Source: Betaproteobacteria bacterium
GTDB taxonomy: Bacteria; Pseudomonadota; Gammaproteobacteria; Burkholderiales; Thiobacillaceae
Length of the DNA: 64,000 bases
NCBI GenBank assembly: GCA_016219425.1
Contig: JACRNB010000001.1
Location: 248,001-312,000 of the forward strand
Direction: 5' to 3'
The notes under the pieces are model-generated. The model was not told where the DNA came from. It did not search any database and saw nothing but the letters and a program-made list of their open reading frames with translations. A program made the translations under genes and the position numbers. Positions 1 to 13,720 of this stretch are shown here, in pieces. The number at the start of each line of letters is the position of its first letter. Within the stretch, counting starts at the first letter, position 1.

Positions 1-1089
1 GGCAAGACCACCCTGGCTCGTTCCGTCTTTCCAGACAAGCCCTATGTCAGCCTGGAAGACGCCGACACCCGCGCCTTTGCACTGGACGACCCGCGCCGCT
101 TTCTCGGCCAGTTTCCTGATGGGGCCGTACTCGACGAAGTGCAACGCGCGCCGGAGTTGTTCTCCTATCTCCAGACCCTGGTGGACGCGGGCACCGGCAT
201 GGGCCGCTTCCTTCTCACGGGCTCTCAGCAATTCGGCCTTACGGAAAACATCACCCAATCCCTGGCGGGTCGGGTCGGATTTCTCCACCTGTTGCCCTTC
301 ACCCTGGCGGAAACCCGCGACCTCTGGGCCGCCAAATCGCTGGAAGAAGTCCTTTGGCAGGGCTTCTACCCGCCCCTGCTGGACCGGGGCATTCCACCCC
401 ACATCTGGTTTTCCGACTACCTCACCACTTATGTGGAACGGGATGTGCGCCTGGCCCTGAATATTCGTGACCTGGCTGCATTCCATCGCTTCGTGCTGAT
501 GTGCGCCGCCCGCACCGGTCAGTTGCTCAACCTTTCAGCCCTGGCCGCCGACTGCGGCATCACCCACAACACCGCCAAGGCATGGCTTTCGGTGCTTGAA
601 GCCAGCAGTCTCGTGGCCCTGCTCGCACCCTATCACCGCAACTTGGGCAAACGGCTGACCAAGACCCCCAAGCTCTATTTTCTGGATACCGGCTTCGCCG
701 CCTGGCTGGCCGGCGTGCGTGAGGCCAGGGAACTGGTGCTGGGCAACTTGCGCGGGCCGCTATTCGAGACTCTGGTGGTGGCCGAATTCATGAAATTCAA
801 ACGCAACCACCTGCGACCGGAAGAGCTGTATTTCTGGCGCGACTCGGCGGGTCACGAAATTGACCTGCTGGTGGAAGCCGGGGACCGCCTGCTCGCCGTG
901 GAATGCAAGGCCGGAAACACGGTGGCGCGTGATTGGTTTTCTGCCCTGGAGAAATTCAGTCACCTGGCCGGCAATGTGGCAGGCCTGATCGTCATGGGCG
1001 GCGATCAGGGACAGCCGCGCGGCGCGTACCCGGTCGTGTCCTGGAGGGACATAGGGGCGACGCTGACCGAGCGACTCGGCGTGGCTTGA
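1..1089 (+). CDS. ATP-binding protein, AAA_14/DUF4143 type (5' end outside window)
   Basis: The reading frame is open from base 1, so the start lies upstream of the window. The first visible residues, GKTTLAR, are the end of a Walker A P-loop, and AVLDEVQR about 40 residues later is a Walker B with the DEVQ form typical of AAA_14 ATPases. The C-terminal half has the DUF4143 pattern: a winged-helix-like part (NTAKAWLSVLEASSLVALL), then FLDTGFAAWL, and finally ELYFWRDSAGHEIDLLVE with VECKAG, which resembles a PD-(D/E)xK nuclease-like core. Proteins of this family are common in accessory DNA and of uncertain role. Its base composition is like the GC-rich backbone and unlike the AT-richer genes that follow. 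Confidence 0.85.
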   Translation, partial: GKTTLARSVFPDKPYVSLEDADTRAFALDDPRRFLGQFPDGAVLDEVQRAPELFSYLQTLVDAGTGMGRFLLTGSQQFGLTENITQSLAGRVGFLHLLPFTLAETRDLWAAKSLEEVLWQGFYPPLLDRGIPPHIWFSDYLTTYVERDVRLALNIRDLAAFHRFVLMCAARTGQLLNLSALAADCGITHNTAKAWLSVLEASSLVALLAPYHRNLGKRLTKTPKLYFLDTGFAAWLAGVREARELVLGNLRGPLFETLVVAEFMKFKRNHLRPEELYFWRDSAGHEIDLLVEAGDRLLAVECKAGNTVARDWFSALEKFSHLAGNVAGLIVMGGDQGQPRGAYPVVSWRDIGATLTERLGVA

Positions 1090-1368: not shown

Positions 1369-2340
1369 ATGAAGCAGTATCTCGAGTTGGTTAGAAACGT
1401 TCTCGAAACAGGAACGCTTCAAGAAAATAGAACTGGCGTTCGTACATTCTCCACCCCCGGCGCAATGATGCGCTTTGATTTGGCAGATGGGTTTCCAGCC
1501 ATTACCACCAAGAAGCTTGCATTTAAGACCGCCATCGGGGAGATGGTTGGTTTCCTTCGTGCATATAAAAGCGCAGCAGATTTTCGTGCCCTTGGCAGCA
1601 AGGTGTGGGATCAGAACGCCAATGAGAATAAACAGTGGCTGGAAAATCCATATCGAATACAGACTGACGATCTTGGCGAAATATACGGTGTGCAGTGGCG
1701 TCAGTGGCCAGCATACAAGGTACTTCAGGCATCCAATACTGCGCAGATTAACGACGCACAACAACGTGGCTTCAAAATCATCACCCAATTTACCGAGAAC
1801 GGGATTGAGCAAGTCTTGCTTTACAAGGCCGTTGACCAGTTGCGTCAATGCCTGGATACTATTATCGCCAATCCATCGGATCGCCGAATTATTTTTCACG
1901 GATGGAATTGGGCACAGCTAGATCAGATGGCTCTTCCCCCTTGTCATCTGTTGTATCAGTTCTTGCCGAATGCGACGAGCAAAGAGATTTCGCTTTGTCT
2001 CTATATTCGCAGTAATGATTTAGGCCTTGGCGCGCCGTTTAATATTGCCGAAGGAGCTGCGTTGTTATCACTTGTTGGGAGGTTGACTGGCTACACACCT
2101 CGTTGGTTTACCTATTTCATAGGAGATGCACACATTTACGAAAACCATCAAGAAATGGTGTTGGCGCAACTAACGCGCAAACCTTACCCAAGTCCGAAAT
2201 TGATTATTTCAGATAGAGTTCCAGAATTTTCAAAAACCGGAAAATATGAACCGAACTGGCTTGAACAGATTGAGCCGTCTGACTTTAGCTTGGAAGGGTA
2301 TCAGCACCATGCTCCGCTAACGGCACCAATGGCTGTTTAA
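1369..2340 (+). CDS. thyA: Thymidylate synthase (ThyA family), long form
   Basis: Converts dUMP to dTMP using methylene-tetrahydrofolate. The folate/dUMP motif NRTGVRT lies near the N-terminus. [14 protein letters not shown] follows, then the active-site segment [11 protein letters not shown] (nucleophile Cys192) and [27 protein letters not shown] comes near the C-terminus. At 323 residues it is longer than the 264-residue E. coli enzyme, with extra sequence before the active site, nearer the long forms such as that of Lactobacillus casei. The open frame continues upstream to 1240, but those 43 residues do not resemble the family and precede the likely promoter. The gene is AT-richer than the backbone and convergent, with a 32-base gap, to the putative defence operon. 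It may therefore be a horizontally acquired or second thyA; whether the genome has another copy cannot be seen. Confidence 0.93.
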
Positions 2341-2372: not shown

Positions 2373-3353
2373 CTAATTTGGGTACTCAAAAACAGTTGTC
2401 ATAGTTGAAGGCTTAGAATATCCCTTTTCGTTATATTCTATAGCACGAGCATAGGCAATCTGAATCCGCTCATTCTGAAGGGCTGCCATACCAACCCCAA
2501 TCGTAGATATTTTTGTATTCATCGGGCAAACTACAATGTTGTAATTATCATGCTTACTGGCTAAATCTAGTATTAGATCTCTGACACTAAGCGGATCAAC
2601 GCACGAAAAATAAAGTGTATCAACTGCCAATTGGGTTTGTTTGGTTCGCTCTACAAACTTTGATAGCTCATCAAAGAAACGCTTGTTAGTCTCATAGTGA
2701 GAAGCAGAAACAGAATTATTGGGATCGCCACACATTAGTGTCAATTGAGCCGGTTCAAACTGCTCAATTACTGCGGCAGCTCGCTCATGCTCAAACCCGG
2801 CCAGAACGATCAGATAAAGTCGCTTGGAAGGTACAAAACTTCCTGGATAGCCAAGTACAGATCGAACTTGCGAAACTCCTCTTGAGAGCCATACATGCTC
2901 AACGTCTGTATTGATACTATATTCTTCCGCACCAGTATATCCCATAAATAGTTTGCAAGATATATTGGACTGTTGAACCACTCTTAGCAGAATCAACAAT
3001 AGCTCGTGAGTGAATGTTGTTGTGTCGATGAACGCATGATGCTCTATTAATACAGCAGCCAAATAGTCTCGAATTGCCTTTGAAATAGCATCAGCAGCTG
3101 CAATAGGCGAGTCCATATCAAGCTCTATTACTGTGTGCCGATCCCCGGCCATTTCTACCATGCGAGCCAAGTTGCGGTCTACCAAAGCATTAACATCTGA
3201 ACTCTTAAAAAACAAGCAATGTGCGCTAGGAGTCAGGTTCAGTGTTTCAATAATTGAAAAACAACGACTCTCATAACTAGCCATACCAATAAAAAGCTCT
3301 ACCCCTTTCGGGAAAAGATCGGACAACTCGCGAAGTGCAACTTTCTGGTTCAT
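2373..3353 (-). CDS. Unrecognised alpha/beta protein, last gene of the putative defence operon
   Basis: I do not recognise this 326-residue protein. Its start overlaps the ATPase stop in an ATGA arrangement (ATG 3353-3351), which indicates translational coupling. The sequence alternates hydrophobic strands and helices in what looks like two lobes. One holds GVELFIGMASYESR and HHAFIDTTTFTHELLLILL; the other holds LYLIVLAGFEHERAAAVIEQF and NIVVCPMNTKISTIGVGMAAL. The last segment loosely recalls the (G)GTK signature of CARF/Rossmann-like nucleotide-sensing domains, but this is inference from a short pattern. There is no signal peptide, transmembrane segment or clear nuclease motif. By position it is a candidate sensor or effector working with the adjacent ATPase and HD protein. 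Confidence 0.75.
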   Translation of the reverse strand: MNQKVALRELSDLFPKGVELFIGMASYESRCFSIIETLNLTPSAHCLFFKSSDVNALVDRNLARMVEMAGDRHTVIELDMDSPIAAADAISKAIRDYLAAVLIEHHAFIDTTTFTHELLLILLRVVQQSNISCKLFMGYTGAEEYSINTDVEHVWLSRGVSQVRSVLGYPGSFVPSKRLYLIVLAGFEHERAAAVIEQFEPAQLTLMCGDPNNSVSASHYETNKRFFDELSKFVERTKQTQLAVDTLYFSCVDPLSVRDLILDLASKHDNYNIVVCPMNTKISTIGVGMAALQNERIQIAYARAIEYNEKGYSKPSTMTTVFEYPN

Positions 3354-5155
3354 AACTCCAGCTCCAATGACATCTGAGCATCAACCACCTTGCCAAGTCG
3401 CCCGCTCTCAAACTCACTGATAGTTCGGTTAGGATTTTGCATAGCGGTTTGAAGTAATTGGTTCGTCACAAATAGATACCCAGAAAATCCAGTTGGGTCT
3501 AATTTAAAAAGTGGTGCCAAACGCCTTGTCATAACAAACCGCCGTGTACGCCCACGACCATCTTTTGTGCCAATGGCAGCCTCATAAAGATAACCGTGAC
3601 GGACACCTAATTCCAAAATATTTAATACATCATCTGGCGGGGTCTCAGACAAAGCAATAGAAAATACTCGCCGTTCAGAGCGGTCTGACAAAAGAATAGC
3701 CTGAAAAATGCCGCCTAAAGACTGAATTAAATTTCTCAATTGCTTAAAGTGATGTGCAGAGGCGGCATCTTGATCTTCTGTTGCATCCTTTAGCAATTTA
3801 TCAAAGGCACCAAAAAATAACGTATCGGCGCTGTTTCTAACTACAGCATCTTGTATAGACGGAGATATTAACTCTATAAATATATTGCTTGCTTGAGAAG
3901 TGGAACTCAGCCTGAGTTTCATTTCTTCGCCATACATAGCAGCAGCGTTATCTAAAAAATAGCGAACAATACCTGATGAGATGTGAACAAGTTGATCAAA
4001 GCCAGCATATGAGTAGGTCCTCATCTGCTTAGCTCCCAATCCCTTAATGTAGTCTGGTCTCGCATACCGGTAGGCATCATCACCGGGTCGAAAGCCCTTA
4101 CCCTCTTTTTCCCAGTTATCCTTATGCTGGCGGGCGAGCTCATTTATTGCCTCCTCTTGTTCATTGTCCTGAGGGAAATAATCCCGCACAGAAACCTTGA
4201 CACCTTGCTCTTCCAATCTTTTTGTCACAACATCAGCAACCCATTTTGGATAGGCCGCATTGGAATGCTTTCCCGTATATATGGTCGAGATGTCAACTTC
4301 CTTGAAATCGTGAGGCGATTCTATTCGCTGCTTGGTTGTTGTTCTCCAGGTTTTATACCCGCGTTGCGTTGAAATTTTGAATGAAACCTTGTTCCCCGTT
4401 CGAAAGGACACCCAATTATTCAGCACTTGAGTTTGAATTAAACTTAGATTGTCTGCGTCATCGAGGAGCAAGTAAATCGGCTTCTTGGGCATGCACTCTA
4501 ATTGAGTAAGTTCGCATAGGAAAGGAAATAAAAAATCCCTATAGCCAACTAACGGACCTGAGTACGGTGTATAATTATCAGATATTCCAACTTTTCTCAG
4601 ATAGGAACTCAATAATCCATAAACATCATCTATTGCCAGAATGGATTGTTTAAGTACATCCTGAGAGGTTTTTGTGTCAGTGATGCCAGCAATATCTGCC
4701 CCTGCTGATAGAAGTTTATTAATCACAAATTGACTACATAGTTTTTCTATGGATCGTTTTATCAGATCGCAGCTTAATGCGTTACCAGTGTGATCTCGGA
4801 GCGACTGCAACACCTTTGATGCCACAAAAAGTGACAACGAGTGTTCTGCCAAAACTAGGCCTGCATATTGATTGCTGATCCTTTCTAAATCTGTTAGATC
4901 GAGGTCTGTGGATTTTATGGTCGCGTAGAGCCCCAGATAGGGGAGATCAACTAGCGTTTTATTCTGCGAGAGCATCAAGCAGTCAGGTGCCATTTGGCGC
5001 AACATCATGCTTTTCCCGCATCCCCGGTGACCATGAATGAACACATGGCCTGGAGCATCAATTTCAAAGTTTTCAGATAGCGGTACGAAAAGCCGATTCA
5101 TATCGGCTGCATCCATCATCTCTGGGGATGAAACGGCAAATGGGTTAGGGCTCAT
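3350..5155 (-). CDS. ORC/CDC6-like P-loop ATPase of the putative defence operon
   Basis: A 601-residue AAA+/STAND-like ATPase. The N-terminal segment SPNPFAVSSPEMMD resembles the lead-in of ORC/CDC6 proteins. Walker A is GHRGCGKS (residues 42-49), Walker B is YLLLDDADN (about 228-236) and a sensor-1-like strand SFKISTQ follows. The C-terminal third (GVRHGYLYEAAIGTKDGRG) looks like a winged helix, which would fit DNA or RNA binding. I place the start at ATG 5155: it has the ribosome site AAGGAG and overlaps the HD gene stop as ATGA. A GTG nine bases earlier (5164) is the alternative. The product probably couples ATP hydrolysis to detection of a signal; the signal is unknown. Confidence 0.85.
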   Translation of the reverse strand: MSPNPFAVSSPEMMDAADMNRLFVPLSENFEIDAPGHVFIHGHRGCGKSMMLRQMAPDCLMLSQNKTLVDLPYLGLYATIKSTDLDLTDLERISNQYAGLVLAEHSLSLFVASKVLQSLRDHTGNALSCDLIKRSIEKLCSQFVINKLLSAGADIAGITDTKTSQDVLKQSILAIDDVYGLLSSYLRKVGISDNYTPYSGPLVGYRDFLFPFLCELTQLECMPKKPIYLLLDDADNLSLIQTQVLNNWVSFRTGNKVSFKISTQRGYKTWRTTTKQRIESPHDFKEVDISTIYTGKHSNAAYPKWVADVVTKRLEEQGVKVSVRDYFPQDNEQEEAINELARQHKDNWEKEGKGFRPGDDAYRYARPDYIKGLGAKQMRTYSYAGFDQLVHISSGIVRYFLDNAAAMYGEEMKLRLSSTSQASNIFIELISPSIQDAVVRNSADTLFFGAFDKLLKDATEDQDAASAHHFKQLRNLIQSLGGIFQAILLSDRSERRVFSIALSETPPDDVLNILELGVRHGYLYEAAIGTKDGRGRTRRFVMTRRLAPLFKLDPTGFSGYLFVTNQLLQTAMQNPNRTISEFESGRLGKVVDAQMSLELEL

Positions 5156-6225
5156 TTTCCCCACTCCTTTTTTGCCATATCAATGCCAGTAATAGCAGCC
5201 ACGTCATCTTCCTTCCTCCAGTCAGCCGGAAGCTCAGGATAGCCCTTATCTTTTATAGTAAATGACTTGCGTTCAAGTGCTATGTTTTGGTCAATTCCAT
5301 CAGCCGATTTGATTTTTGTAAAATACATTGATACTTCGATACGATCCGTTTGCATTGAGTGCAGCAGGAAGCGATTGCAGTATACGCGCTCGTGGTTTAG
5401 CTTATCGAGACGATCCATGACATCATCAATTAAATATTTCTCTGTGTTACCATTTTCGTCTTGGGGAATTTTGTATTTTTTAGAAAGCAGGTCAACATCA
5501 AAATCAAACTGAAGTTTGAAAGATTTGTTCAATCTGTCAGGTTTTGCTCCCACTATACATTTAGCATAATGATGGAAAAGCTCGCTCTCAGGCGGAAGAT
5601 TGCCTTGATTTACATGGTGAAGTGAAGCACGTGATCGGTGTTCGCAAATTTCATCTGCGAATCTGACTATCGCCGCAACCAATCTGGGCCTTGCATCTGC
5701 ACCACCAACTAGAGTGGTATCTAACAGAGCACCAATGGTATCTTTATCGTTATCAGAAACTGTGCGTCCACCATGTGCCTGAGCAATATCCGCAATCAAG
5801 CGATGTTCGGCCGAATCTTTTGCAATATCACCACCGTATTCCTTCAAAATAGGGAAGGCCTTTCGCGCGTGATTATCACGACCATCAATGTTGCCAGCGT
5901 CATGAACTCGAATTGCACATAGCAACAAATAAAGCTCATATGGATTCAGTGAGGCATCTTTTTGATCGAAGGTGCCCTCAATAAGATAGCCTGCATATCT
6001 GACCACTTCATCAAAATGAAGCTCACCATGATCTGTAAAAAACCCAGGTGATCTTGATAAACTAGAGAGCCCAGCATTTATGTAACGATAAACATAGGTT
6101 TGCAAGCTATGCACCAAGGATGTGTATCTATCCCAATATTTAACATGTTGATCAGCAAATTCGCCTTTTCTGTTACTGGCGAATTCCTCAAGCCTCAGTT
6201 CTAATGGGAGCCAATGGTCACTCAT
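5152..6225 (-). CDS. HD-domain phosphohydrolase, conflict-system (HD-CE-like) type
   Basis: A 357-residue protein with the metal-binding pattern of HD phosphohydrolases: His66/His70 (TDHGELHFDE), the His108-Asp109 doublet in LLCAIRVHDAGN, His119, His151 (AQAHGG) and Asp191-Glu192 (RFADEICEHRSRA). The long helical lead-in and the distal FADEICEH segment resemble the HD-CE family described in bacterial conflict systems; that assignment is from memory of the family. HD enzymes cleave phosphate esters of nucleotides such as dNTPs, cyclic nucleotides or ppGpp. The substrate here is unknown. It sits 32 bases after the methyltransferase gene and shares a 4-base stop/start overlap with the ATPase gene. 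Confidence 0.85.
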   Translation of the reverse strand: MSDHWLPLELRLEEFASNRKGEFADQHVKYWDRYTSLVHSLQTYVYRYINAGLSSLSRSPGFFTDHGELHFDEVVRYAGYLIEGTFDQKDASLNPYELYLLLCAIRVHDAGNIDGRDNHARKAFPILKEYGGDIAKDSAEHRLIADIAQAHGGRTVSDNDKDTIGALLDTTLVGGADARPRLVAAIVRFADEICEHRSRASLHHVNQGNLPPESELFHHYAKCIVGAKPDRLNKSFKLQFDFDVDLLSKKYKIPQDENGNTEKYLIDDVMDRLDKLNHERVYCNRFLLHSMQTDRIEVSMYFTKIKSADGIDQNIALERKSFTIKDKGYPELPADWRKEDDVAAITGIDMAKKEWGK

Positions 6226-6257
6226 GGTCTAAATATCTTCCATATTCTTTAATGTTC

Positions 6258-7313
6258 TCATCCATGCTCAACGATGGCTTGAAACACAGCTTTTGCTAGT
6301 AGCGGAGGCACAAGATTGCCAACTTGCTGCTGCTGGAAACCGATGGAGCCAGTGAACCTGAACGAATCTGGGATTGATTGTAAACGAGCTGCTTCCCGTA
6401 CTGACAAACCACGATCCTTCCACGGATGAACCAGCATATTTTTCCGGAAGTTTCCAATCACGACAGAGGGCTCATCCTCTTTGAGTCGCCTATAAATACC
6501 CGTGTGGCATCTGGAAACATCGGCATAATTTTTCATCAACCTTTGGGGGATGTCTTCCCAGTTGCCGCCTTGTGGGATGTAGCCATATCGCTTAACAATA
6601 TGCGGCGCGTTATTGGTCACCACATTATTTCCACACTGCTCCAGTTTTTTTCGCATTAACTTGGCATAAGCGGATTCTGCCGCCCTTGAGTATTCTGTTA
6701 TATCCGGCGCATCACCATTATCCAACTCAGGTAAATCAGAAATTGCATCTTTTACAGTACGATATTTTTTCACTGTTGGCTTCGGCTTTCCGATTTCGAT
6801 TCCGTGCAATGAACCAATGATGAATAAGCGATTCCTTTTTTGTGGCACGCCGAAATCAGCCGAGTTCAGTACAAAATGGTGTGTAGTATATCCTAATATT
6901 TTGAACCCATCCAAGACGGCATCAAGAAAATAGCCGTTCTCTGTTTCGATTAAGCCTTTTACATTTTCAAAAACAACCCAGTCAGGTCGCACCTCTTTGA
7001 CAAGCCTCACATACTCCATGTAGAGCCAGTTGTTGGCATTGAGCAGGTCGCGATTTTTCTGGTTCGAGGTTGAGAAACCTTGGCACGGGGGGCCCCCAAA
7101 AATAACCGAGGGTTGTTTCTTGTCAAACCCTTTGAAGTGCTTAGCCTTTACGGTGCGGATATCCTCGTTTAGCAGGATAGTGTGTTTGTGGTTAAGCGTG
7201 AACGTGGCGGCGGCGTGCTTGTCCAGCTCGACGGCATAGCGGACATTAATCCCGCTCATAGTCGCACCGATAGACATCCCCCCCGCACCGCTGAATAAAT
7301 CAATTGCCTGCAT
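6258..7313 (-). CDS. dcm: DNA (cytosine-5-)-methyltransferase
   Basis: A 351-residue C5-methylcytosine methyltransferase that transfers methyl from S-adenosylmethionine to cytosine in a target DNA site. Motifs are in canonical order: I DLFSGAGGMSIG at the N-terminus, IV GGPPCQGFS (catalytic Cys77), VI ENVKG, VIII QKRNRLFIIG, a short target-recognition region, and X QVGNLVPPLLAKAV. I choose ATG 7313 because GGAGAGG lies just upstream and a likely promoter (7361-7389) would be transcribed into it. The open frame runs on to 7379, but that start would precede the -10 box. No restriction endonuclease gene adjoins it. The next three genes on the same strand are HD phosphohydrolase, ATPase and an unknown protein, so methylation may mark self DNA for that system or the enzyme may be solitary. 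Confidence 0.95.
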   Translation of the reverse strand: MQAIDLFSGAGGMSIGATMSGINVRYAVELDKHAAATFTLNHKHTILLNEDIRTVKAKHFKGFDKKQPSVIFGGPPCQGFSTSNQKNRDLLNANNWLYMEYVRLVKEVRPDWVVFENVKGLIETENGYFLDAVLDGFKILGYTTHHFVLNSADFGVPQKRNRLFIIGSLHGIEIGKPKPTVKKYRTVKDAISDLPELDNGDAPDITEYSRAAESAYAKLMRKKLEQCGNNVVTNNAPHIVKRYGYIPQGGNWEDIPQRLMKNYADVSRCHTGIYRRLKEDEPSVVIGNFRKNMLVHPWKDRGLSVREAARLQSIPDSFRFTGSIGFQQQQVGNLVPPLLAKAVFQAIVEHG

Positions 7314-7316
7314 TCC

Positions 7317-7352
7317 CACCCTCTCCTCGCGCGGGAACACCCTCTCCTCGCG
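7317..7352 (-). repeat. 15-bp direct repeat in the methyltransferase leader
   Basis: CACCCTCTCCTCGCG occurs perfectly twice, at 7317-7331 and 7338-7352 (period 21). The copy nearer the gene carries the Shine-Dalgarno sequence on the minus strand, so the transcript would contain two ribosome-site-like segments. Confidence 0.7.
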
Positions 7353-7360
7353 AGGGTAGG

Positions 7361-7389
7361 GTATCACGAACATACTCACCCTGCTTCAA
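7361..7389 (-). promoter_or_regulatory. Candidate promoter of the dcm-HD-ATPase-unknown operon
   Basis: Read on the minus strand, TTGAAG (7389-7384) and TGATAC (7366-7361) are separated by 17 bases. Transcription would start near 7354, giving a leader of about 40 bases to the ATG at 7313. Confidence 0.4.
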
Positions 7390-7396
7390 CCATAAG

Positions 7397-7412
7397 ATAA
7401 CCAATTGGTTAT
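7397..7412. promoter_or_regulatory. 16-bp perfect palindrome upstream of the operon, operator candidate
   Basis: ATAACCAATTGGTTAT is its own reverse complement. It lies immediately upstream of the candidate -35 box, where a dimeric regulator would bind. No regulator gene is visible in the island, so the binding protein is unknown; self-binding by the methyltransferase is one possibility. Confidence 0.5.
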
Positions 7413-7545: not shown

Positions 7546-8767
7546 GGAGCCGCTGAACAAATGCTGATTACAGAGCGGCCGATGATACTGAAGCGCGAAG
7601 TGAACGCGATCGCGCGCGGTGAAGCGCGCAATTCGCCCTTGGGATATCGAGATCGGCGGTTTATAGGCCCCATTTCTGCCCCTTTATCGCCCAGCGGACG
7701 CAACTTGGGCATGAGGCACCAACAGCCATCACCGCGCCAGCACCAGCACCAGATTGGCCAAATCAAACAGGGTCAGGAGTTGCTGGCTGTTCTTGGTCAA
7801 CCCCCGGTACCGAGTCTTCCTGTGCTTGAATAGGTCTTTTACGACATGGAAGGGATGTTCCACCTTGGCTCGGATGCGCGCCTTGGCGTACTCGATCTTC
7901 TCCAGCAACGCACCCATCGGGGTGTTGGGCAAGGCTTTACGTTTGCCTAGTCGCATCGCGACATGCCAGGTGACCGCCGTGTCCTGGTTCTCCGATCGCT
8001 TGCCCACCCCCTGGTCGCCGGCATCGGCAAAGACGTCCGTTTCTTTACCGTGTAGCAAGGCATGCGCCTGCGTGACGTCGTTGACGTTGTCCGGCGTGGT
8101 GACCACGGTGCGGATGAGGACCGATTCGGCGTCGACACCAATGTGCGCCTTCATGCCGAAGTACCACTGGTTGCCCTTCTGGGTCTGATGCATCTCGGGG
8201 TCGCGTTCGCCGTCATGATTCTTGGTGGAACTGGGCGCGGCAATGATCGTGGCGTCGACGATGGTGCCTTCCCTGAGCATCAACCCCATCTCGGCCAGAT
8301 GGGTGTTGATGGCGGTAAAGATGGCCTGAGTGAGGTTGTGCGCTTCGAACAGACGTCGGAAGCGCAGCAGTGTGGTGGCGTCGGGGGCCGTCTCGCGCGC
8401 CAGATCGATCCCAACGAAGTGGCGGATGGCCTGGCTATAGTAGATGGCATCTTCGGTGCCTTCGTCAGAGAGGCCGAAACATTGCTGGGCGATGTACATG
8501 CGCAGCATGCGCTCCACGCCGATCGGCGGGCGACCCCGGCCTTCCCCCTTGGGGTAGGCCGGTTCCACCGCCGCCACCAGCGCCGCCCACGGTGTCACCG
8601 CTTCGATCTCGTCCAGGAAGCGGTCGCGTTCGCTTCTTCTTGGCGGCGTATTCCAGTTCAGAAAACTCGCTTGCACAGGCTTCCTTCTCTTGAATCTCGT
8701 CGGGAAAATTCTCTCAGCTCCGCCCGTCTCTGCGGGGCTCGGGGGCGGGGATTAAATCAGCGGCTCC
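7546..8767 (-). mobile_element. Complete IS5-family insertion sequence (1222 bp)
   Basis: The ends are inverted repeats: GGAGCCGCTGA at 7546-7556 and its complement TCAGCGGCTCC at 8757-8767 (11 perfect bases, 14 of 17 overall). Both ends are flanked by CTAA (7542-7545 and 8768-8771), a YTAR target duplication as expected for IS5-family elements. The element holds one transposase gene on the minus strand. Intact ends, target duplication and open frame suggest a recent, possibly active insertion. It lies between the AT-rich island and the kdp operon. Confidence 0.9.
7729..8676 (-). CDS. IS5-family DDE transposase
   Basis: A 315-residue transposase. The N-terminal DUF772-like region contains GRPPIGVERMLRMYIAQQ and FGLSDEGTEDAIYYSQAIRHF. 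The catalytic core shows the first Asp in EGTIVDATIIAAPSS, the second in TDVFADAGDQG, and the C-terminal YAKARIRAKVEHPFHVVKDLF with the catalytic Glu. The start is GTG at 8676 with AAGGAAG just upstream. The gene is full length. The 183 bases between its stop and the left inverted repeat contain no convincing gene. Confidence 0.93.
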   Translation of the reverse strand: MQASFLNWNTPPRRSERDRFLDEIEAVTPWAALVAAVEPAYPKGEGRGRPPIGVERMLRMYIAQQCFGLSDEGTEDAIYYSQAIRHFVGIDLARETAPDATTLLRFRRLFEAHNLTQAIFTAINTHLAEMGLMLREGTIVDATIIAAPSSTKNHDGERDPEMHQTQKGNQWYFGMKAHIGVDAESVLIRTVVTTPDNVNDVTQAHALLHGKETDVFADAGDQGVGKRSENQDTAVTWHVAMRLGKRKALPNTPMGALLEKIEYAKARIRAKVEHPFHVVKDLFKHRKTRYRGLTKNSQQLLTLFDLANLVLVLAR

Positions 8768-8966: not shown

Positions 8967-9542
8967 TCAACGTCCCCCCGCATCCAGCGCCAGGTTCAGC
9001 GCCAACACGTTGACCCTGGGCTCGCCCAGGACACCCAACTGGCGATCTTCGGTGTGTCTGGTCACCAAGGCGCGCACGGCAGCGGCATCGAGGCCGCGGG
9101 AGCGGGCGACGCGACCGGCTTGGTATTCCGCCGCCGCCGGGCTGATGTGGGGGTCGAGGCCGCTGGCGGAGGTGGTGACCAGATCCACGGGGATGGGGGC
9201 GGTGTTGTCGGGGTCGGCGGCTTTCAGGGCCGCGATGCGGGATTTCACGGCGTCCGCCAGGGCGGGGTTCAGGGGGCCCAGGTTGGAGCCGCTGGATGCC
9301 GCCGCGTTGTAGGGCATGGGCCCCGTGGCCGAGGGGCGGCCCCAGAAGTACTTCGGGTCGGTGAAGGGTTGGCCGATGAGTTCCGAGCCGACTACCTTGC
9401 CGTCCCGCTCGATCAGGCTGCCGTTGGCCTGGTGCGGGAAGACGCCTTGGGCGATGCCGGTAACGATCAGCGGGTAGAGGCCGCCGGTGATCACGGTGAG
9501 CAGGGCCAGCAGAGCCAGGGCAGGTTTGAGTTCTTTCAGCAT
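8967..9542 (-). CDS. kdpC: Potassium-transporting ATPase subunit KdpC
   Basis: A 191-residue subunit of the KdpFABC high-affinity K+ pump in the inner membrane, where KdpC stabilises the complex and affects ATP affinity. One N-terminal membrane helix ([20 protein letters not shown]) is followed by the periplasmic domain with the family segments [31 protein letters not shown] and [14 protein letters not shown] 9542 is chosen over the longer frame because AAAGGAG precedes it and the length then matches E. coli KdpC (190). It is the last gene of the kdp operon in the window and is separated from kdpB by 125 bases holding a repeat-like inverted repeat. Confidence 0.95.
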
Positions 9543-9576
9543 GGTGAGTGCTCCTTTGGGAGTAGCTGATTTATTC

Positions 9577-9643
9577 GTCACCCCGGCGAAGGCCAGGGTC
9601 CAGTTCGTTGAGTCGCCTGGATTCCGGCTTTCGCCGGAATGAC
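9577..9643. repeat. REP-like imperfect inverted repeat in the kdpB-kdpC gap
   Basis: Two 27-base arms, 9577-9603 and 9617-9643, are complementary at 21 of 27 positions. The right arm also forms its own hairpin (ATTCCGGC TTTC GCCGGAAT). Sequences of the form GTCATTCCGGCGAAAGCCGG are dispersed in many proteobacterial genomes. Here the element sits inside an operon and could affect kdpC expression or mRNA stability. Confidence 0.75.
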
Positions 9644-9667
9644 GGACCGGGTTTGTTTAGCGCTTCC

Positions 9668-11743
<2,076 letters not shown>

Positions 11744-11753
11744 GAGGGGTTCC

Positions 11754-13499
11754 TTATTTCACGCCGATCATCTGCAAGTGCTCCACCACCGGCCCCAGGG
11801 CCAGGGCGGGCACGAAGGTGAGGGCGCCGACGACGATCACCGTGCCGATCAGGAGCAGCACGAACAGGGGGGTGTGGGTGGGCAGGGTGCCCGCCGAGAC
11901 GGGGATGATCTTTTTGGCGGCCAGCGAGCCGGCGATGGCCAGCACCGGAATGGCCACCCAGTAGCGCGCCATGAGCATGGCCAGCCCCAGCAGGCCGTTG
12001 TAGAAGGGGGTGTTGGCGGCGAGTCCGGCGAAGGCGCTGCCGTTGTTGTTGCCGGCGGAGGAGAAGGCGTACAGCGCCTCCGAGAAGCCATGCGCGCCGG
12101 GGTTGAACAGGCCCGCCCGGCCCGCCTCCAGAGCCACCGCCAGGGCCGTACCCGCCAGCGCCGCCAGGGGCGGGGCCAGGATGGCGATGGCGGCCATCTT
12201 CATCTCGAAGGCCTCGATCTTCTTGCCCAGGTATTCCGGGGTGCGGCCAATCATCAGGCCGGCGATGAACACCCCCACCAGGGCGAACACGATCATGCCG
12301 TAGAGCCCGGAACCGACGCCGCCGAAGATCACCTCGCCCAGTTGCATCAAGCCCAGGGGAACCAGGCCGCCCAGGGGGGTGAAGGAGTCGTGCATGGCAT
12401 TCACCGAGCCGTTGGAGGCGGCGGTGGTGGCGGTGGCCCAGAGGGCGGAGTTGACGATGCCGAAGCGGGTCTCCTTGCCTTCCATGTTGCCGCCGGCCTG
12501 GAGGTCGCTGGCCTGGGTGGACAGCCCCAGCCGCTCGAACAGCGGGTTGCCCGATTGTTCGGCCCCCACGCACACCGCCAGCAGGACCGTGAACACCAGG
12601 GTCATGGCGGTCAGGATCGCCGTCCCCTGGCGCAGGTCGCCGACAAAGCGGCCAAAGGTGACGCACAGGGCCGCCGGGATGAGCAGGATGGCGAGCATCT
12701 CCAGAAGGTTGGAAACCGGCGTGGGGTTTTCCAGCGGGTGGGCGGAGTTGACGTTGAAGAAGCCGCCGCCGTTGGTCCCAAGCTGCTTGATGGCGACCTG
12801 CGAGGCCACGGGGCCCACGGCGATGGTCTGGCTGGTGGTCTGGCCGGTGGCGGCGTCGGCGGGCTGCACCAGCGCCGCATCCACATGGGGCGAGAAGGTC
12901 TGCACCACGCCCTGGCTCACCAGGGCCAGGGACAGGAGCAACGACAGGGGCAGGAGGATGTAGAGGACGGAACGGGTCATGTCCACCCAGAAATTGCCCA
13001 CGCCACCGGACTCCCTGCGGGTGAAGCCACGCATCAGGGCGACCAGGACGGCCATGCCCGAGGCGGCGGAGAGGAAGTTCTGCACCGTCATGCCCAGCAT
13101 CTGGGTCAGGTAACTCAGGGTGGTTTCGCCGCCGTAGCTCTGCCAGTTGGTGTTGGTGGCAAAGCTCACCGCCGCGTTGAAGGCCAGATCGACGCTGGCA
13201 TTGCCCAGCCCTTCTGGATTAAGCGGCAGCCCGGCCTGAAGCCTGAGCAGGGCGTAGACCGCGGCAAACCCCAGCAGGTTGAAGGCCAGCAGGGCGAAGG
13301 CGTAGCGGGTCCAGGGCATGTCGTCGTCGGCGCGCACGCCGCACAGCCGGTACAGGCCGTGTTCCAGGGGGCGCATCCAGCGGGCGAAGCCGGGCAGTTC
13401 ATCCCGGTACACCCGCGCCATGTAAAGCCCCAGCGGCCAGGCCAGCCCCAGCAGGGTGACGAGGTAGAGGGCGAGTTGGAAATAGCCGTTGCCGCTCAT
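11754..13499 (-). CDS. kdpA: Potassium-transporting ATPase subunit KdpA
   Basis: A 581-residue K+-binding channel-like subunit of KdpFABC, with repeated membrane helices and pore loops including [28 protein letters not shown], and [13 protein letters not shown] set the start at ATG 13499: the upstream 61 codons of the open frame are arginine- and proline-rich shadow sequence of kdpF, and the start then overlaps the kdpF stop (TCATGA) with GGAGG just before it. Its length is close to the 557 residues of E. coli KdpA. Confidence 0.96.
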
Positions 13500-13588
13500 G
13501 AGAAGTCCTCCGGAAAGAACAGGACGGCCAGCAGGTAGACGAAGACGCCTGCGGCGGCGAGGAGCGCGATGAGGTGGAGCGTGTTCAT
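13496..13588 (-). CDS. kdpF: KdpF small membrane subunit
   Basis: A 30-residue protein that is almost entirely one membrane helix (LIALLAAAGVFVYLLAVLFF). KdpF is a small lipid-like stabiliser of the KdpABC complex, about 29 residues in E. coli. It overlaps both neighbours: its stop with the kdpA ATG and its ATG with the stop of the preceding small ORF. Size, hydrophobicity and position all fit. Confidence 0.85.
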   Translation of the reverse strand: MNTLHLIALLAAAGVFVYLLAVLFFPEDFS

Positions 13589-13677
13589 CCGCGCCTCCGG
13601 TTTTGCTCGAAGGCCAGCGCGAGGGCTGCGCAGAGAAGGAAGAAGCCCGTGGTGAGGGCGAGGGGGATGAGGTCCAT
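13585..13677 (-). CDS. Small one-helix membrane protein at the head of the kdp operon
   Basis: A 30-residue ORF beginning at ATG 13677 with the Shine-Dalgarno AGGAG six bases upstream. It ends in a GGATGA overlap with kdpF. The product has one membrane helix (LALTTGFFLLCAALALAF) and a basic tail, EQNRRRG. From memory, similar unnamed small proteins of the form MDxxxxxLTxxFF recur before kdpF in other proteobacteria. Its role is unknown; it may be an accessory to the Kdp complex or a leader peptide coupling translation to kdpF. Confidence 0.65.
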   Translation of the reverse strand: MDLIPLALTTGFFLLCAALALAFEQNRRRG

Positions 13678-13720
13678 GACATCTCCTGGGTGGGGATGCC
13701 CGGACTGTAGTGACGCGCGG

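What the first reader, a model, noticed from the sequence alone, without database searches (positions are those of the whole stretch)
2373..7412. Candidate undescribed defence system: 5mC methyltransferase + HD phosphohydrolase + ORC/CDC6-like ATPase + unknown alpha/beta protein
Four minus-strand genes share one likely promoter; the last three are coupled by 4-base ATGA overlaps. The gene types (self-marking methylase, nucleotide-cleaving HD enzyme, P-loop sensor ATPase, unknown partner) are those of modular anti-phage systems. The locus is AT-richer than the backbone and sits beside an insertion sequence. I cannot match the set to a named system.
Basis: partly seen in the sequence, partly recalled or inferred. 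Interest (0 to 1): 0.82.

Follow-up and report, generated by a model that had tools for sequence, protein, structure and literature searches.

The report
Mobile phage-defence set with thymidylate synthase
Five neighbouring genes (a DNA-marking enzyme, a predicted nucleotide-destroying enzyme, an ATP-driven protein, a signal-sensor-like protein and a spare copy of the enzyme that makes the DNA building block dTMP) look like a mobile bacterial immune system in which the role of the dTMP-making enzyme is a puzzle that can be tested.

Summary
The four-gene operon is real and recurs: C5-MTase, HD, ORC-like ATPase and CARF proteins occur together in beta- and alphaproteobacteria, a Bacteroidota plasmid and IMG/VR contigs. 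A fifth gene was left out: the convergent thyA at 1369-2340. It shares the island's low GC, is a second copy in this genome, and belongs to a divergent ThyA type that travels with the module. A thymidylate synthase lies at the module's 3' end in 8 of 17 loci whose 3' side could be read: ThyA in three, the unrelated ThyX in five. Plasmid ThyX copies also adjoin sister systems in which PRTase-CE or a calcineurin-like phosphoesterase stands in place of HD. Best reading (inferred): a nucleotide-targeting immune system in which the MTase spares self DNA and the synthase spares or re-supplies dTMP. No activity was tested; nine of the 17 loci lack the synthase, and it might be a passenger of defence hot spots. 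New variant of a known kind, with an unexplained recurrent partner.

The parts
6258..7379 (-). C5-cytosine DNA methyltransferase; probable start ATG at 7313
   Evidence: PF00145 5.1e-65; Type II MTase models; start from relatives and DNA similarity
5152..6225 (-). HD-CE predicted phosphohydrolase; His66, His70, His108-Asp109, His119, His151, Asp191 invariant in 15 relatives
   Evidence: PF24391 2.3e-24; alignment A4; model pLDDT 83.6; weak fold matches to PPX/GppA, PDE, SAMHD1, YfbR
3350..5155 (-). ORC-CDC6-like AAA+ ATPase
   Evidence: PF24389 4e-98; Walker A GxRGxGKS
2373..3353 (-). CARF6 tandem-CARF protein, predicted nucleotide sensor
   Evidence: PDLC01917 3e-75; model pLDDT 92.5; fold matches to Cam1, Csm6, Can2
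1369..2340 (+). Divergent ThyA-type thymidylate synthase, extra copy, converging on the operon (ORF opens at 1240; relatives start at the Met at 1369)
   Evidence: PF00303 6.7e-85; second copy in genome; 84-89% identical to L006/L100 copies, 42-45% to nine native ThyA; GC 46.6%
7729..8676 (-). DDE transposase (DDE_Tnp_1, DUF772) of the neighbouring insertion sequence; not part of the system

Best explanation
The locus is a mobile immune system of the kind ORC-CDC6-like ATPase + CARF6 + nucleotide-targeting effector, here in its HD-CE form. Proposed working: the ATPase and the tandem-CARF protein form the sensing and switching unit, watching DNA and/or a nucleotide signal that changes during phage infection. 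When it fires, the HD enzyme hydrolyses nucleotides, so that phage replication stops and the cell may stall. The methyltransferase marks self DNA so that the unit stays off. The thymidylate synthase, ThyA or the unrelated ThyX, is a second safeguard that keeps up or restores dTMP and so offsets leaky or post-infection depletion. Shown here: gene set, conservation, mobility, fold assignments, and recurrence of the synthase as two unrelated enzyme families. Inferred: every functional step.
For: Family matches; CARF fold; co-occurrence: HD, ATPase and CARF queries each return the same 4 of 72,556 plasmid records, and MTase+HD+ATPase+CARF are together in 16 of the 20 distinct loci. Synthase at the 3' end in 8 of 17 readable loci, ThyA or ThyX, convergent in 5 and co-directional in 3. 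Window and L006 align as one block from inside thyA to the MTase start; window and L100 align only over MTase and exactly over thyA, with an exchanged core between. ThyX also adjoins ORC+CARF6 systems with PRTase-CE or a calcineurin-like enzyme in 5 of 11 plasmid regions looked at. The fold and family of HD fit phosphate-ester hydrolysis. A synthase domain occurs in one protective system of DefensePredictor (PMC13092281, section 5 and passages).
Against: Nine of 17 readable HD-type loci lack a synthase, and 4 of 13 control loci carry ATPase+CARF6 without one, so it is not required. 3 of 11 plasmid synthase regions border a different candidate system and 3 of 11 border neither. HD fold matches are weak (none at E <= 0.001) and do not separate nucleotide hydrolase from nuclease. 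Glu after His119, present in 8 of 9 aligned relatives, is Ala in the window. In CARF fold search KaiC chains rank above CARF ones, with rmsd near 20. No phage or enzyme assay exists here.
Confidence: 0.45

Rival explanations
1. The synthase is a passenger. Spare thyA/thyX genes sit in hot spots or plasmid islands where defence cassettes gather, and the four-gene defence system works without it.
For: 9 of 17 readable loci have none. In rhizobial plasmids thyX lies in islands near RHE_PE00001-type and integrase genes with varied cargo, including a PDC-M65 pair in L140. In five HD-type loci it is convergent, not in the operon.
Against: Co-directional, abutting or overlapping placement in L089, L092 and L094, and in L143 and L119 beside the MTase; two unrelated synthase families; 0 of 13 control loci have one; MTase and ThyA stay together while the core is exchanged.
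Confidence: 0.3
2. Restriction-like system: the ATPase loads on unmethylated DNA, the HD protein is a metal-dependent DNA nuclease, CARF regulates it, and the synthase is unrelated cargo.
For: A self-marking type of MTase heads most operons; HD proteins can be DNases (recalled, Cas3); ORC-clade ATPases load on DNA and accompany restriction functions (PMC10853773 passages); several invariant His/Asp residues could hold two metals (inference).
Against: Pfam places the HD protein in HD-CE, and no DNase-type HD structure was among the 50 best fold matches shown. Sister systems use PRTase-CE or a calcineurin-like enzyme in the same slot, of which PRTase is hard to picture as a DNase.
Confidence: 0.15
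3. Variant of the best reading: dT or dU nucleotides are the signal itself. The synthase sets their level and so holds the CARF/ATPase unit off until phage enzymes disturb it.
For: Clover's HD dGTPase CloA is activated by raised dTTP and held off by p3diT (PMC12265719, abstract and opening text seen); CARF-like fold and conserved residues.
Against: No link by sequence or gene content to Clover was found; CARF ligands known to me are cyclic oligoadenylates (recalled); ligand pocket not examined in the model.
Confidence: 0.2

Closest known systems
HD-CE / PRTase-CE / ORC-CDC6-like conflict families (PF24391, PF24390, PF24389; recalled as from Nicastro et al. 2023, which is not held)
   Same: Same effector and ATPase families by Pfam
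   Different: Whether that paper lists this CARF6 + MTase + thymidylate synthase set could not be checked
CARF6 proteins of PADLOC
   Same: PDLC01917 3e-75 for the window protein; tandem CARF-like fold
   Different: Here in an operon with HD-CE, ORC-like ATPase and MTase; no type III CRISPR link shown
Clover (CloA dGTPase + CloB nucleotidyltransferase; PMC12265719, abstract and opening text seen)
   Same: HD-superfamily enzyme proposed as nucleotide-pool effector; thymidine nucleotides in play
   Different: No nucleotidyltransferase among the listed matches of the four proteins; ORC ATPase, CARF and MTase instead
Type II restriction-modification
   Same: C5-MTase at the head of the operon
   Different: No endonuclease family matched among the four proteins
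DefensePredictor system with a thymidylate-synthase domain (PMC13092281, section 5 and passages)
   Same: Synthase domain in a protective system
   Different: The main text has no 'CARF' or 'HD domain'; its gene content was not seen, as figures are not held

Membership tests
HD-CE (PF24391) | Match over the curated cut-off | tested here: met
   87 bits against 27
HD-CE (PF24391) | Degrades nucleotides | not testable with these tools
   Weak fold matches only
ORC-CDC6-like (PF24389) | Match over the curated cut-off, Walker A present | tested here: met
   330 bits against 27; GxRGxGKS
CARF6 | Profile match and CARF-like fold | tested here: met
   PDLC01917 3e-75; Cam1, Csm6, Can2 at probability 0.99-1.00 among fold matches that KaiC heads
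CARF6 | Binds a cyclic oligonucleotide | not testable with these tools
   No ligand data
Type III CRISPR ancillary CARF effector | Cas10 cyclase in the same cell | tested here: inconclusive
   PF22335: G000 best 34.8 bits in a 564-aa frame, G109 103.7 bits, none in G419 or in 3 of 4 plasmids; the model also rings in E. coli
Type II restriction-modification | Endonuclease beside the MTase | tested here: not met
   None of the four proteins matched an endonuclease family among the matches listed (for the MTase only the best 25 of 65 PADLOC rows were shown)
Clover | CloB nucleotidyltransferase beside the HD enzyme | tested here: not met
   No nucleotidyltransferase among listed matches of the four proteins
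Thymidylate synthase ThyA (PF00303) | Profile match and catalytic residues | tested here: met
   284.9 bits; PPCH, RSND, PFNI and GDAHIY motifs kept in the alignment (which residues are catalytic is recalled)

The most novel reading that the evidence does not exclude
Thymidylate synthase is a working part of a class of nucleotide-targeting immune systems built on an ORC-CDC6-like ATPase and a tandem-CARF sensor. Effector (HD-CE, PRTase-CE, calcineurin-like), self-marking methyltransferase (C5, N6/N4 or none) and synthase (ThyA or ThyX) are interchangeable modules, and dTMP supply acts as antidote or as the off-signal of the sensor.
Probability: 0.5. Interest if true: 0.8.

Novelty: new variant of a known kind. 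Interest (0 to 1): 0.62.

Why it matters
A defence that depletes nucleotides must spare its host. If a dedicated thymidylate synthase does that here, these systems carry a metabolic antidote, and the recruitment of two unrelated enzymes with the same reaction would point to the metabolite at stake, dTMP. This can be tested by removing one gene and adding thymidine. It would also give CARF6 proteins outside CRISPR a concrete setting.

Tried and rejected
Role of the synthase tied to 5-methylcytosine (for example repair of deaminated bases): set aside, because ThyX also accompanies N6/N4-type MTase systems and one region without an MTase gene in the operon. Native housekeeping thyA next door by accident: rejected for G000 and G862, which each have a second, canonical thyA. 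In the Sideroxydans MAG the module type is the only ThyA found, beside folA, so replacement of a native gene is possible there, but the MAG's completeness was not given. Cas10 as source of a CARF ligand: inconclusive. Sequence searches of solved structures with HD, ATPase and the fourth protein gave nothing useful. A viral scan with the window CARF alone found no relative. Phage records: one truncated record only. Most weak hits of PF24389, PF24391 and the HD alignment below the strong ones were short P-loop or HD-motif matches; some served as controls, the rest were dropped. Literature: searches showed no paper that ties a thymidylate synthase to a CARF/HD-CE system, but 72, 92 and 129 listed only 20 of 437, 12 of 209 and 12 of 267 papers, and three papers that I expected to describe the families are not held.
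Full report
What is there. The island is 43.7% GC against 65.0% for 8800-64000, with a DDE transposase at 7729-8676. The promoter claim is not borne out by a consensus scan, which is weak evidence either way. The MTase probably starts at 7313, not at the GTG at 7379.

What the proteins are. HD protein: PF24391 HD-CE, 2.3e-24. ATPase: PF24389 ORC-CDC6-like, 4e-98. MTase: PF00145, 5.1e-65. The fourth protein is CARF6, PDLC01917, 3e-75. Its AlphaFold2 model (pLDDT 92.5) has two alpha/beta halves. In the fold search KaiC chains rank first, with rmsd near 20, and CARF domains of Cam1, Csm6 and Can2 follow at E 9e-5 to 9e-4 and probability 0.99-1.00. The HD model (pLDDT 83.6) gives only weak matches, none at E <= 0.001: exopolyphosphatase/GppA first, then phosphodiesterases, SAMHD1 and YfbR.

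Recurrence. Counting duplicate contigs once, 20 distinct loci of this type came in. All four genes are together in 16: window, L006, L044, L045, L046, L047/L063, L050, L089, L090, L091, L092, L094, L100, L123, L130, L131. L136 is cut at its 5' end. L007 has the core with other MTases and ends 0.5 kb past CARF. L084 shows ATPase and CARF only. L048 is cut inside the ATPase. The system is rare: strong HD hits in 3 of 399 genomes of the order (5 of 399 at E <= 0.001) and 3 of 398 of the phylum (14 of 398 at E <= 0.001); CARF hits in 4 of 369 of the class, two of them strong. In plasmids, HD, ATPase and CARF queries each return the same 4 of 72,556 records, one of them Bacteroidota.

The fifth gene. 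The convergent thyA at 1369-2340 is an extra copy: the genome's canonical thyA is on another contig (434 against 284 bits). Module ThyA of window, L006 and L100 are 84-89% identical to each other and 42-45% to the nine native ThyA aligned. Window and L006 align as one block from 1419, inside thyA, to 7314 (70.8%). Window and L100 align only over the MTase (6290-7313, 76.1%) and over thyA (1369-2340, 76.3%, exactly the gene), while HD, ATPase and CARF are 28, 27 and 24% identical. In the core tree L100 falls with L131 and L130 (FastTree support 0.967 and 1.0), in the MTase tree with L006 and the window (0.999). So the core was exchanged between a conserved MTase and a conserved ThyA.

Counting the synthase. 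Of 17 loci with a readable 3' side found without the synthase as query, 8 have it at that end: ThyA in window, L006, L100; ThyX in L045, L046, L089, L092, L094. It is convergent in the first five and co-directional in L089, L092 and L094, abutting or overlapping the gene before it in L089 and L094 and 20 nt after it in L092. Nine do not have it: L044, L047, L050, L090, L091, L123, L130, L131, L136 (for the L047 plasmid the whole record). Three could not be read (L007, L084, L048). In L090 and L091 only 2.2 and 1.4 kb are readable past CARF. Related loci share history, so the eight are not independent; on the core tree they fall in several separate places (window+L006, L100, L045/L046, L089, L092+L094). 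Control: 13 loci of 15.7-20 kb drawn in by other ATPase, HD or CARF hits contain no synthase (L051 and L052 are near-identical). Four of the 13 (L049, L051, L052, L060) carry ATPase plus CARF6 without a synthase, so it is not universal.

Reverse test. With module ThyA and ThyX as queries, 96 and 225 plasmid records match. I looked at 11 regions among the best hits not already known, and left out near-duplicates and lower hits. Five carry ORC-CDC6-like plus CARF6: L119, L141, L143 and L146 with PRTase-CE, and L145 with a calcineurin-like phosphoesterase. Their MTase is of N6/N4 type by Pfam in L141 and L119, annotated only as a DNA methyltransferase in L143, a partial Type II MTase match in L146, and not seen in the L145 operon. 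Three regions have a two-gene candidate next to thyX; only the L140 proteins were scanned (PDC-M65A/B), and L142 and L144 resemble it by gene size. Three have neither (L139, L147, L148). This sample leans to rhizobial plasmid islands.

Reading. Three effector types share this ATPase/CARF unit and a synthase; HD-CE, PRTase-CE and a calcineurin type were, as I recall, proposed as nucleotide-targeting effectors by Nicastro et al. 2023, which is not held. ThyA and ThyX are unrelated enzymes that share the reaction dUMP to dTMP (established knowledge). The simplest common role for the synthase is to protect or reset the thymidylate pool, or to set a dT-nucleotide signal. The MTase suits self-marking. 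None of this has been tested at the bench. The chief rival is that spare synthase genes are residents of defence hot spots.

Context in print. A thymidylate-synthase domain is named among newly validated defence domains by DefensePredictor (PMC13092281; section 5 and passages read); its main text holds neither 'CARF' nor 'HD domain' and its figures are not held. Clover (PMC12265719; abstract and opening text seen) ties an HD dGTPase to dTTP. The passages seen of PMC12839542, PMC10853773 and PMC7824862 do not describe this gene set. The searches named under Tried and rejected showed no paper that does; the library lacks most subscription journals.

Noticed in passing
L094:8369-15094 and L123:4937-10465: Two contigs 83-87% identical on both sides carry different forms of the system in the same slot: HD-ORC-CARF-MT-thyX in L094; Vsr, MT-HD-ORC-CARF and no thyX in L123. 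The flanks look like prophage tail genes by eye; Pfam gave no support for that.
   Followed up: partly
L102 (G531:C11), Sideroxydans MAG: The only ThyA found in this MAG is the module type, with the operon sitting between it and folA; no ThyX.
   Followed up: partly
L140:8968-13327: A plasmid thyX is followed by the PADLOC candidate pair PDC-M65A/B; similar gene sizes follow thyX in L142 and L144.
   Followed up: partly
L089:1761-6557: Minus-strand genes beside the system look like BREX BrxC/BrxB/BrxA by eye; not tested.
   Followed up: no
L089:13722-14171 and L123:4917-5441: Vsr mismatch endonuclease genes border two of the systems, as is usual for C5-MTases.
   Followed up: no
L048:118-6961: A gut phage-record scaffold carries HD and a cut ATPase of this type after three large genes that look like other defence genes by eye; not tested.
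   Followed up: no
L092:15546-16874: A protein kinase gene (PF00069) follows thyX on the same strand.
   Followed up: no
window 5152-6225, residue 120: The Glu after His119 in 8 of 9 aligned HD proteins is Ala in the window copy.
   Followed up: no
window 7313-7379: Upstream of the likely MTase start lies a short near-repeat (cgcgaggagagggtg twice).
   Followed up: no
window 139-1089 and 8967-13682: Neighbours of the island: a DUF4143/AAA_14 ATPase and what look like kdpC, kdpB and kdpA by eye.
   Followed up: no
G001:C7 and G001:C27: Another genome of the genus has two canonical-type ThyA genes.
   Followed up: no
G109: This genome (96% complete) carries the four-gene system but gave only a weak ThyA hit and no ThyX.
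   Followed up: no
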